A stretch of DNA of 64,000 bases from Chelonoidis abingdonii (taxonomy: Eukaryota > Chordata > Testudines > Testudinidae), in contig NC_133771.1 of assembly GCF_003597395.2 (NCBI RefSeq), positions 135,710,687 through 135,774,686 of the forward strand, given 5' to 3'. Shown here piece after piece: positions 45,401 through 54,400 of this stretch (position 1 is its first letter; the number at the start of each line of letters is the position of its first letter). The notes beneath the pieces were generated by a model that saw nothing but the letters and a program-made list of their open reading frames with translations, did no database searches and had not been told where the DNA came from. Position numbers and translations under genes: made by a program.

Positions 45401-48400
45401 TGGGATAATTTCAAGGCTCCCTCCACACTGCCACACTCTGAATGAAATCTCTGCAATTAGGAATGCATAATAAGTATCCACATAAACCTAAAGTAATTTG
45501 TAAATTCTGAACCTTAATACATTTTTCTACTATATGCACTATGTCACATACGATTAAAGGAAAATATTTAGCTTGCAGAGAACATGAAAAAACTAACAAA
45601 CTGGGCTCTGTGTCGGACCGTCTCACTTCAGTGTTCTCTAAACTCTGGAGAAGCAGCTATGGATTTATATCCCTTTATAAATAATGGCAGGCAAAGTTCC
45701 ATTGGTGAGTTTTACTAGGGAGTTTACACAGCTTTCGGCCCAGAGATTAAAATCTATAGTGGACTGATGCAAAACCAAACAACTAAATTCAAGTGAGAGC
45801 TATGTAGAGTTGCACTCATAGATAAAAGTTTGAAGCTAGTTTACATAGTTTCAGCAGGAGGCTGGGTGAAGGGTAAGCACACAACATATGTCAATATTAG
45901 AATTCATAAGGGGTTTAGGAGGATTTATTCTGAATGTCAGATCATGGAATCAGAACTGGTATTGGCACAAAAAAGCTAGCTTTTTAAAAAAAGGACTGAA
46001 ATAATGACAAATTCAAAGATAGCGTTTGTATTCAATATTGAAGTTGATTTTATTTTTACAAAAAATTTTAAAATATCTTTCACAAATGACCTTTTATTTT
46101 ATACATCACTGTTTGCTGTGTTTCAATTAACCAACCCCCACCCCCGCCCCAATCAACTACCCCCATTACATATCGCAGGCATCAGGATATATTTTTTATT
46201 TGAATATGGTCCCAACTATTTACCTCTGAATTGATGCACATCTGTGATTTCATCAAAAAGGCACAGTCAGTAACTGGTGTTCAAGATGTGTTGCTCATGT
46301 CTATTCCACAATAGGTGTGTGTGCTTGCCACATGCACTGGTGTTGGAAGTTTTTCTCCTAGCAGTACTCGTAGGGGAGTGCCCCTAGCAACCCCTGGAGT
46401 GGCATCTCCATGGAGTAGTATAAGAGACACTGCGCGCTCCCCCTACCCTCAGTTCCTCCTTGCCAGTCAACTCTGATAGATGGGAAGTGGGGCGGGATGT
46501 GGAATAGACATGAGCAACATCTCGAAGAACACCAGTTACGGAAAAGGTGACTGTCTTTTCTTCGAGTGATTGCTCACGTGTATTCCATAATAGGTGATTC
46601 CAAGCTATACCTTCTGGAGGTGGGGAGGCGTTCAAATTCTCCGGCCGGAGCACAGCCCTGGCAAATCCGGTGTCCTCCCTGGTTTGGGAGATGATTGCAT
46701 ACCACGTGGCAGCCCTACACATGTCCTGGATGGGGATATGGGCCCAAAAGGCAGCTGACAAGGCCTGTGCCCTAGTTGAGTGTCCCCTCACAGTTGATGG
46801 TGGGGGGATTCCCACCAGGCCATAACTGGTACGGATGAACGGTGTGATCCAATTGGAGAACTGCTACCTGGAGACCGGATGACCCTTCATGCGTTCAGTT
46901 GAGGCAATGAACGGCTGCGAGAACTTTCTGAATGGTTTTATCCACTGCAAGTAGAAACCCAGAGCCCAATGCACATCCAGTGTTTGAAGGCGGTGCTCCT
47001 CACTGGACGCACGGGGCTTGGGGCAGAGGACTAGCAGAAAAATGTCCTGACCCATGTGGTAGACAGAGACCACCTTTGGGAGGAACGAAGGATGTGGGCA
47101 GACCTGGACATTATCTTCATGGAATACCCTGTACGGGGGCTCGGAGGTCAGGGTCCTGAGTTCCGAGACCTGCCTAGCCGACATGATTGCCACCAGAAAG
47201 TCTACCTTCCACAAGAGGTGTGACCAGGAGCACGTAGCTAGCAGTTCAAACAGGGGTTCCATGAGGCAGGCCAGCACCAGGTTCACGTCCCAATGTAGGA
47301 CTGGGGCCTGATGTACGGGAAGAGACGATTTAATCCCTTAAGGAATCGGCCAGTCATAGCATGGGAGAATACCGTGTGGCCCTGCACCAGCAGGTGAAAG
47401 GCCGATATGGCCACCAAGTGCACCTTGAAGGATGAGAGAGCCAAGCCCTGAGCTCTAAGGTGAAGGAGGTAGTCCAGAATGAGCTGGATTGGGGCAGCCA
47501 CAGGGGAAACGCCCGGCTCATCCACCCATCAGGTGAACTGAGACCACTTTACCAAGTAGGCTCAGCGTGCGGAGGGTTGCCTGCTTTCCAAGAGGATGCG
47601 CTGGACCCCTTCTGAGCACGTCCTCTCCTCCCAGCCTAACTATTGAGCATCCAAGCCGTGAGGTGGAGTGCCTCTAGCTTGCGGTGTAGGAGGCAGCCCT
47701 GGTCCTGGGAGAGCTGGCCCGGGCTGGACGGCAACTGCCACGGCGGGGTGACCACCAGGCCTGTGAGGGTCCTGTACCAATGCTGCTTGGGCCATGCGTG
47801 GCAATCTGTAGGACTCAGGCCCTGTCTGTCTTTATCTCTTCCAGGACCTCAACTAACAGTCGGAACGGGTGAAAAGGCATAGAGAAACCAGCTCAACCAG
47901 GACAGAAGGAAAGCATCGGAGATAGTGCCAAGTCCCAATACCCCCCAGAGCAGAACCAGGAACAGTGATGGTTCTGCGGGGTCGCAAACAGAGTTGCCCA
48001 CTCTTGGAAAAGTCTGTACACTAACTCTGAGTGAAGGGACCACTCATGCTGAGAGAAGTAGTCCCTGCTCAAGCGATCCGCCTGCAAGTTCCAGGCGCTT
48101 GGTAGGTTGTAGGCCTGGTCACACATATTGTGGGCTATACAGAAGTCCCACAGCCTGAGGGCTTCCTGGCAGAGGATCGGGCCCCGCCTTGCCTGCTGAA
48201 GTAAACCATAGAGGCCATGTTGTCTGTGAGATCCCTGACCAACTGGCCCTCCAGGTGCAAGTGGAAGGCCATGCACCCCAGCTGCACTGCCCTGAGCTCC
48301 TTCATGTTTATGAGGAGGGCCAGGTCCTGCGCAGACCACAGACCTTGGGTCTGAATATTCCCACATGGGCTCCCTACATGCATTGGATACCAATTTCATC

Positions 48401-51400: not shown

Positions 51401-54400
51401 CCTACAGGCTGATGGGGATCGAGGACTGCCCAGCACCAGGTCTAGTCTCTGCCCCAGATTTACTCCAGTGCAGTGATGGAGAAGGCCTCCTCTTAGCCTT
51501 CTTGGCATGCACTGTGGATGGGAAGCAGTGCCAACTAGTACATGCTACCGGGGGGTCGCCGCACCCCGACACTGCGGTGCCCGATGCCAACTTGGAGCGG
51601 CGCCCAGGAGTCGGGGTCAACACTGACTCCATGAGGATAGCCCAGAGCCTAATGTCTCTCTCTCAGTCGACGGCTTAAAAGACTTCCGAATCTTACAGCG
51701 ATCGCTGAGATGAGTTTCACCCAAACAGTGTAGACAGTCCAAGTGCGGATCACTCACTGGCATCAGGCGCCTACAAGTGTTGCATGACTTAAAACCTGGG
51801 GCACAGGGCATGACCCTGCCCAGGTGCACTAGCTAAACTAAAACTAATCGAGTACTAAATACAGGTCACTTATACTGAACAAACAAGAGTTCTGGGGACA
51901 AGCTACAGCAAAGCTGGAACAGAGCAAAGCTGGAGCAGAGCAGCTCCGAAGCACCTTCACTGGCAGCAAGAAGGAACTGAGGGTGGGGGGAGCGGGGCAG
52001 TGCCCCTTATACTGTGCTATGGAGGCGCCACTCCAGGGGTCACCAGGGGCATTCTCCTACGGGTACTGCTAGGGGAAAAACTTTCAACACCGGTGCACGT
52101 GGCAAGCACATACACCTATTGTGGAATACATACGAGCAATCACTTGAAGAACTACATATTCCCCAATAGTGTAATGATATTTGTATAGATTCGTTCAACA
52201 ATGGACTAATTCTTGTTGCTGTAGCATTACACAAATATAAAAACTATGAAGGAAGTCTTGCTTGCTTACGAACTGGTTTTAACAAAATCAAACCACTACA
52301 AAGAAGAATGTCTAAACCCAAGTTTAGATCCAAATGTGTTAGAAGTATATCTTATTCCCCACCATATTCAAATTCTTCTCTGTTTCTCTGCCATGCTCTT
52401 TTGTTATTCTGAGGAATAGAGTTCCCAAAGTTAACATCATTGATTTATAGCCAGTTTCCGTATGTCACACAACAAAAATACTGTATTTAACAATGACAAT
52501 AAAATACATCCCCTCTTAATTGTTTAAAATAATGGTTGAACAGACATCAAAACACTACAATGCCATTTTAAATTTGATAGAGTCAAGTGTACGCCTGTAA
52601 ATAAAACCTCATTTAGTTCACTCAACTGCATATCCAGGAGAAATATTTCAATAGAAATAATGCTAAGTTTTAAACAGTAAGTTTCAGCAGAATATTTAGA
52701 ACTAATGTTTTAAATATCCAGTAAGTGGTTTTACTTACCTGCAGCACTGCCCAATCAATCTAGACATATTGTTACTGCAGCAAGTTAGATGATTGGACAT
52801 TTAGATGTCCACTGCTGTACAATGTAGATATCAAGTATCTGGTGTGCATATTGTACATTTTAAACAGAAAAATGAAGGATATTCAATTTTTCCTGCCAAT
52901 TGATTATTTTTGACTAAATCATGTGACACCTGCAGAAAGTTCACTACTTGCTACTCTTACTTCATTTGTGCAGTAGTTGACACCCATAATAGGAAGAGAA
53001 GTCCCTGCCCAGGCAGTCTTCAGAACTGCCTCTAGCTTCCCTCATATCCTTCCACATGGGGAGAAGGGAACAGAGGAAGCACCATAAAGCAGGTCTTTGT
53101 CTGTTACTCTTCACCTTGAGAGAATTACAGCTTCCAGCCTGCCCTTCCTACCCCCCGCCCCCCGCAAAGCCCTGATCCTGCAAAGCATTTGAGCACCTGC
53201 TTAATTTTAAGCATATGAAGTCAATAGGACTACTCATGCTTAAAGTTAAACAGGTACTTAAGTGCTCTGTTGGATTAGGGCCCAAAGAGTATTCTGGGAG
53301 GTGAAGTGAAAGGGAACAGTATGGAAAATGTGTGGGACAGCAGGAGAGAGAGTGCTTGGACGGGGATCTCAGGGCTGTGTTCCCACTGAACGAAAAAAGG
53401 ACCGAGTGAGCTGTTGGAACCTTCCCTCAACAGATAAGAAAGAAAGGCATTAAAATATACTGATTGGCTCAAGAGTAATACTGTATGCACTGGTTTAAAA
53501 ATGCTTTCAGTTAAAATAAAGTCAACTGCAACATGCAGTATTAGTTTTACAATGAATTTCCTGGTAATTTTTTTAAAGAAAGTGACCATAACTGCAACAT
53601 TCAAATAAGCATGATTTAGTAATGAACAAATCAACATGAGAGCCAAACTTGATTCACGTGTTTGAATACTCATGTGTATTCTAGTTCAGCCAGGAGTTAT
53701 TTTAGTGAAATTCTATGCCCTGCATTATACAGGAGGTCACATCAGACAATCCTTCCAACTCTTGAATGTATGAATTATTTGTATTATTGTAGTGTACTTC
53801 TGGCAACAGATTGAGATAAATGCACTTCAAGGCTTTAAATAAGTAAGTATGTATGTAAAAACCCTGAATTGATGGATGGATGGATATATGACACAACATA
53901 CTAAAAGTTTGAAAGTTGTGTACTTTGCATGTGCAGTGCACAAATTTGAACTGTAACGGGTTTCTAAATGAAACTACTTCAGAAATGTCTGATACTTAAT
54001 ATAGTCCTTCAGTAAAGACAACAGCAAATTGGAAGTTCTAAGAAGCTATCACAGTGAAAAATATTTTTGTATACGCCACTCTTAGCAGAAGCAAAAAACT
54101 TCACGCTACTGTAATCCAAACAAGCAAAACATAATTATTCAGCTCAAATATCACCCTTAGCCCAAGAACAAGAATTAGAACATGGCCAGTTTTCCCCAAA
54201 AATAATAGAACTATCTTAAACTTAGGGCCAAGTGGTCTACTAGGACAGATGATAAAAAATTATGTTAGATCAGCCTTCAGCCAGCTACATTTTAATTGAT
54301 TTCTTAAAGTAAACTTAAGAGGATTAAACTCATGAACTTTTGTGTTCTGCTTTACATGATTAAATTTCACCAACATCTTAAGAAGCCCCTTAAACTGGTG

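What the first reader, a model, noticed from the sequence alone, without database searches (positions are those of the whole stretch)
46270..52160. Near-complete DIRS-like element with inverted ends and internal complementary region in a GALNT2 intron, sense orientation
Split-type DIRS elements are patchily distributed in amniotes and usually fragmentary. Here both inverted terminal repeats, an internal complementary region and gag-RT-RNase H-YR remnants are all readable in one copy. Being on the coding strand of GALNT2, it could supply splice sites or a poly(A) signal to the host transcript.
Basis: partly seen in the sequence, partly recalled or inferred. Interest (0 to 1): 0.75.

Follow-up and report, generated by a model that had tools for sequence, protein, structure and literature searches.

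The report
Old turtle DIRS retrotransposon in GALNT2
This is an old, dead, nearly full-length copy of a common kind of turtle jumping gene (a DIRS1-like retrotransposon) sitting in an intron of the gene GALNT2; it is a good textbook specimen but ordinary.

Summary
A decayed DIRS1-like retrotransposon fills about 46255-52151. It has 174-base inverted terminal repeats (85% identical, E 1.3e-50) and an internal complementary region matching both termini. Gag, RT and recombinase remnants lie in the expected order on the minus strand. GALNT2 exons are on the minus strand too, so it lies in sense. RNase H was not confirmed by any profile.

It is not a rarity. One RT search of the same genome gave 2592 first-look candidates; 40 were scored, all matched, and none of the other 39 exceeds 87% identity. 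Terminal inverted repeats were detected in 9 of 14 fetched copies. Layout and size match published anole elements (PMC3266345), and turtle DIRS1-like elements are published (PMC4495291).

This copy is dead: gag, RT and recombinase each change frame, and its terminal branch is 0.074. 'Split-type' is wrong: the repeats are inverted. Nothing shows that GALNT2 uses it; the best sense acceptor is within chance (39 of 200 shuffles), and no RNA data were available. Ordinary, known kind.

The parts
46255..52151 (-). whole DIRS1-like element, about 5.9 kb, coding on the minus strand
   Evidence: ends set by alignment with other copies of this genome; internal matches
46255..46310 (-). 3' terminus of the element (end of right ITR plus right extension), lacking a few bases that other copies have
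   Evidence: complementary to the ICR; alignment of 9 sequences
46291..46463 (-). 3' (right) inverted terminal repeat
   Evidence: 85% over 174 against 51966-52139, E 1.3e-50
46498..46542 (-). right ICR: complementary to the 3' terminus
   Evidence: 86.7% over 45 against 46267-46310; 0 of 2000 shuffles
46558..46596 (-). left ICR: complementary to the 5' terminus
   Evidence: 87.2% over 39 against 52113-52151; 0 of 2000 shuffles
46771..46782 (-). HSTR, tyrosine-recombinase motif
   Evidence: only HSTR in six frames of the window; motif named for DIRS1-like recombinases in PMC3266345 (13 of 28 elements there)
46882..47654 (-). tyrosine-recombinase remnant, in two frames
   Evidence: tblastn of leatherback P0011, 63% and 68%; only weak Cre matches, E 0.06-0.95
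48788..49343 (-). reverse transcriptase remnant, in two frames, CLDDW box
   Evidence: tblastn of turtle proteins, up to 72%; RVT_1 E 1.2e-6, just under the cut-off; box
49554..50541 (-). gag remnant related to the LAP2alpha domain, in two frames
   Evidence: tblastn of P0012 and P0018; LAP2alpha Pfam in 5 of 15 gag sequences at E up to 0.1
51091..51297 (-). upstream part of gag, weakly matched
   Evidence: P0014, 35%
51966..52151 (-). 5' (left) inverted terminal repeat
50179..50184 (-). AATAAA in sense inside gag (candidate poly(A) signal, untested)
   Evidence: two AATAAA in sense, one in antisense
50521..50521 (-). best-scoring sense splice-acceptor-like site of the element (last intron base), not beyond chance
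54717..54820 (-). GALNT2 exon upstream of the element
   Evidence: peptide match; splice sites
45324..45450 (-). GALNT2 exon downstream of the element
   Evidence: peptide match; splice sites

Best explanation
A DIRS1-like retrotransposon of a high-copy, old turtle family inserted in sense into a GALNT2 intron and then decayed in place. When alive, such an element is copied by its RT. The internal complementary region would let the cDNA ends meet and close into a circle, and the tyrosine recombinase would insert that circle by recombination over about 3 bases, leaving no target duplication. Shown here: the anatomy, the orientation, many related copies, the shared structure in a part of them, and the decay. 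Inferred from the literature on DIRS1: the circle and recombinase steps. Present role: most likely none; it is spliced out with the intron (inference).
For: ITRs and both halves of the ICR. Gag-RT-recombinase order on one strand by turtle homologues. HSTR and RT box. Terminal inverted repeats detected in 9 of 14 fetched copies and an ICR-to-3'-end match in 6 of 14. 40 of 40 scored genomic candidates match, of 2592 first-look candidates. Size and layout as AcDIRS1 (5938 bp, conserved ITR 140, ICR 40-58) in PMC3266345 (table passage). RT profile best matched by Ty3 among solved structures (4ol8, E 1.9e-11; best 60 of 205 matches shown), as the literature states for DIRS1-like RT.
Against: The recombinase rests on one leatherback homologue without a Pfam domain, the motif and position; profile matches to Cre are not significant (E 0.06 at best), PHROGs gives integrase at 0.098, and the structure model failed (pLDDT 35.9). 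RNase H and methyltransferase were not confirmed by any profile. No RT tree against named PAT, Ngaro and Viper references was made, since none were on hand. Five of 14 fetched copies show no terminal inverted repeat pair, which I put down to lost ends.
Confidence: 0.95

Rival explanations
1. The element has been partly exapted: GALNT2 splices into its gag and ends there on the element's AATAAA, giving a shortened transcript, in the way that gag gave the LAP2alpha exon of TMPO.
For: Sense orientation. An acceptor-like site at 50521 followed 337 bases on by AATAAA at 50184. Precedent in TMPO and ZNF451 (PMC4495291, passages). Chelonia gene models that join gag to host exons (P0016, P0022, P0024).
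Against: The acceptor score is reached in 39 of 200 dinucleotide shuffles, and the site ranks second of 625 sense AG sites in its intron, below one close behind the donor. No sense donor in the element reaches score 8, against 8.2 and 8.4 for the two flanking GALNT2 donors. The gag frames are broken. By my reading of the sequences, the join would meet a stop three codons on, the junction codon included. No RNA evidence was available. The Chelonia models may be prediction artefacts.
Confidence: 0.03
2. It is an LTR or LINE element, or an endogenous retrovirus, whose inverted ends are accidental.
For: Pfam names the RT only as RVT_1; the RT profile's best solved relative is Ty3.
Against: Inverted ends of 174 bases with an ICR matching both, recurring at the same places in other copies; recombinase remnant and HSTR; gag related to LAP2alpha.
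Confidence: 0.01
3. It is a composite of two partial DIRS insertions that look like one.
For: At least one other locus holds adjoining copies (a second left end in L012).
Against: The window copy is collinear with two other copies, L016 and L020, each in two blocks from 46267 or 46271 to 52151.
Confidence: 0.01

Closest known systems
DIRS1-like elements of sauropsids: AcDIRS1 and AcDIRS2 of Anolis carolinensis (PMC3266345, Table 3 passage)
   Same: Size near 5.9 kb, inverted ends with a conserved part of about 140, two ICRs at the 3' end of about 40 and 60 bases
Turtle DIRS1-like elements whose gag is related to the LAP2alpha domain (PMC4495291 passages; Repbase DIRS-5 of Chrysemys picta bellii named in PMC9210276)
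   Same: gag with LAP2alpha likeness upstream of RT and recombinase; ITRs; many copies
   Different: This is one degenerate copy in GALNT2; which Repbase family it belongs to was not tested
Dictyostelium DIRS-1 (PMC5633606 passages)
   Same: ITRs plus an internal complementary region; proposed circular cDNA and recombinase insertion
   Different: Host, sequence, and decay

Membership tests
DIRS1-like retrotransposons | inverted terminal repeats | tested here: met
   174 aligned bases, 85%, E 1.3e-50
DIRS1-like retrotransposons | internal complementary regions near the 3' end, matching both termini | tested here: met
   the 3'-end match also in 6 of 14 other copies
DIRS1-like retrotransposons | reverse transcriptase | tested here: met
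   RT box CLDDW; not placed in a tree with named references
DIRS1-like retrotransposons | tyrosine recombinase instead of an integrase | tested here: inconclusive
   homologue P0011 63% and 68% and HSTR, but no significant profile match and a failed model
DIRS1-like retrotransposons | RNase H and methyltransferase domains after RT | tested here: inconclusive
   no Pfam match; remnants judged by eye from recalled patterns only
DIRS1-like retrotransposons | gag-like first ORF | tested here: met
   P0012 71%; LAP2alpha Pfam in 5 of 15 gag sequences
DIRS1-like retrotransposons | 3-base circular junction and no target duplication | tested here: inconclusive
   the ends fall in short A-rich runs, so the junction triplet cannot be fixed; the empty site was not available
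PAT or Ngaro ('split-type') | split direct repeats A1 ... B1 A2 B2 | tested here: not met
   the long repeats are inverted; the one direct pair that joins the two ends is 33 bases at 79% (D1) and is the ICR, already counted
LTR retrotransposon or endogenous retrovirus | long terminal repeats in direct orientation | tested here: not met

The most novel reading that the evidence does not exclude
GALNT2 of this turtle has an alternative last exon inside the DIRS gag (acceptor near 50521, AATAAA at 50184), a third independent case of host genes using DIRS gag after TMPO and ZNF451, here giving a shortened enzyme.
Probability: 0.02. Interest if true: 0.45.

Novelty: already known. Interest (0 to 1): 0.12.

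Why it matters
It is a clean specimen: both inverted ends, the internal complementary region and remnants of three genes can be read in one copy, and the same genome holds many relatives for comparison. It adds little new, since turtle DIRS1-like elements with ITRs are in print (PMC4495291). Its sense position makes one cheap test worthwhile, because DIRS gag has become a host exon in mammals before.

Tried and rejected
AlphaFold2 of the leatherback recombinase homologue aligned with two window pieces gave pLDDT 35.9, so no fold search was made. Profile searches for the recombinase in Pfam, NCBIfam, PHROGs and solved structures gave nothing significant. The LAP2alpha match of the window gag alone is weak (E 0.014; solved structure 2v0x E 0.59); relatives carry it more clearly (best E 4.8e-6). 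Exonisation by splice scores was examined and not supported (the matrices are recalled and come from no call). The CLDD box, a Cys codon in 13 of 35 RT copies, was looked at as possible editing; the substitution counts are dominated by C-to-T and G-to-A, with A-to-G 0.045 against T-to-C 0.026, and this was not pursued. Paper searches.

Full report
What is there. The stretch 46255-52151 is one transposable element read on the minus strand. Its ends are inverted repeats: 46291-46463 against 51966-52139, 174 aligned bases, 85% identical, E 1.3e-50 (one search gives the same pair ungapped). Inside the left end on the + strand (the element's 3' end) lies an internal complementary region in two halves. 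46498-46542 is complementary to the left terminus and 46558-46596 to the right terminus; none of 2000 single-base shuffles of each terminus reached the observed score. In element orientation this is the order left ITR, genes, left ICR, right ICR, right ITR, right extension, as described for DIRS1-like elements in PMC3266345 (passages, section 3).

Genes. A snapping-turtle RT protein (P0001) matches 49283-48806 in two frames with 65% and 72% identity; P0004 extends the match to 49343 and P0002 to 48788. Of 10 RT relatives found, 6 are named as Chelydra serpentina and 4 are unnamed entries. Pfam RVT_1 scores E 1.2e-6, just under its cut-off. A leatherback protein (P0011) matches 47654-46882 in two frames with 68% and 63%; it was the only relative found for the recombinase piece (1 of 16 candidates). 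HSTR, the recombinase motif named in PMC3266345 (carried by 13 of 28 elements there), occurs once in the six frames of the window, at 46782 on the minus strand. Gag 50541-49554 matches turtle proteins; of 14 relatives, 13 are named as Chelonia mydas or Mauremys mutica and 1 is unnamed. Pfam finds LAP2alpha in 5 of the 15 gag sequences examined, the window's own among them at a weak E of 0.014. RNase H and methyltransferase remnants were judged by eye from recalled patterns only; profiles found nothing. That the host is a turtle is inferred from these relatives; no call names it.

Host gene and orientation. Of seven recalled GALNT2 peptide stretches, six match, all on the minus strand, at 54819, 45457, 38004, 37706 and 32698 (two at 45457). 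The element lies between the exons 54820-54717 and 45450-45324 (splice sites), in the same direction. That part of the finding is right. The exon numbers were not tested, and no paralogue was compared.

Other copies. The search of the window's own assembly (2.26 Gb, 3849 contigs) with 359 bases of RT gave 2592 first-look candidates, of which 40 were scored and 40 matched. The window is one of them; none of the other 39 exceeds 87% identity. The unscored candidates are not counted as copies. I fetched 14 of the 39 with long flanks, all from the minus strand and from the top 19 rows. Terminal inverted repeats were detected in 9 of 14 and the ICR-to-3'-end match in 6 of 14 (threshold 1e-10). The other 5 (L010, L014, L015, L018, L022) match the window copy at one end only. 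Two of 14 (L016, L020) are collinear with the window copy from end to end in two blocks. So a near-complete copy is unusual but not unique here. The termini of 9 and 13 sequences agree up to the same points and then differ, which sets the ends at 46255-46257 and 52149-52151. Seven of the 12 other right ends carry a further GAA, so the exact last base is uncertain.

Decay and age. In 35 RT sequences (the window and 34 of the 39 others; five of the last six rows of the list were left out), with CpG columns removed, the window copy is 0.108 to 0.178 from the others, its terminal branch is 0.074, and it ranks 30th of 35 from the shortest. The copy has frame changes in gag (near 50144-50119), RT (near 49155) and recombinase (near 47337-47304). 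The RT box reads CLDD; a Cys codon stands there in 13 of 35 copies, so this need not be private damage. I take this as an old, finished burst (inference); no absolute date is given because no rate was measured here.

Does it act on GALNT2? The best sense acceptor-like site in the element is at 50521 (score 12.8), with AATAAA in sense at 50184 and 49502 against one in antisense. Shuffled versions of the element reach that acceptor score in 39 of 200. It ranks second of 625 sense AG sites in the intron, below a site close behind the donor. Of three GALNT2 acceptors scored, two give 13.7 and 12.8 and one only 7.5, so the score decides little. No sense donor in the element reaches 8 (best 7.8), against 8.2 and 8.4 for the two flanking GALNT2 donors. 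Read from the sequences printed, a join of the upstream exon to 50521 would meet a stop three codons on, the junction codon included (inference). There is no RNA evidence.

Comparison. The layout and size match anole AcDIRS1 and AcDIRS2 (PMC3266345, table passage). Turtle DIRS1-like elements with ITRs, many copies and a gag related to LAP2alpha are described in PMC4495291 (passages). That paper took 792 painted-turtle regions and found RT_DIRS1 in 642 cases and RNase H of DIRS1 type in 594. 'Split-type' belongs to PAT and Ngaro (PMC3266345 section 3; PMC9210276 passages) and does not fit. The proposed working of such elements (ICR-aided circle, recombinase insertion over 3 bases, no duplication) is from PMC3266345 and PMC5633606 (passages) and was not tested here.

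Verdict. It is ordinary.

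Noticed in passing
window 31054-31290 (+): A second, much more decayed RT remnant resembling DIRS RT (24-34% to turtle-type DIRS proteins, best E 2e-5; YVNDWL box), on the strand opposite to GALNT2 and beyond its exon at about 32.7 kb.
   Followed up: partly
P0016, P0022, P0024 (Chelonia mydas): Three green-turtle protein models named LZTR1, PRRC2C and NCBP1-A begin with DIRS gag and run into other sequence (BTB and MIF4G-like Pfam domains in two of them); P0016 and P0024 leave gag at nearly the same place. Either prediction artefacts or gag used as a first exon.
   Followed up: partly
RT copies L009-L042, YxDD box: The RT box has a Cys codon in place of Tyr in 13 of 35 copies (the window included), scattered over the tree; source polymorphism or repeated mutation not resolved.
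   Followed up: partly
L012 6207-7412: A second, more distant left end of the element (64.6%) lies directly beside the first copy's right end, suggesting adjoining DIRS copies.
   Followed up: no
window 43746-43862: Short, very GC-rich tandem repeat (unit about 49, 2.4 copies) between GALNT2 exons.
   Followed up: no
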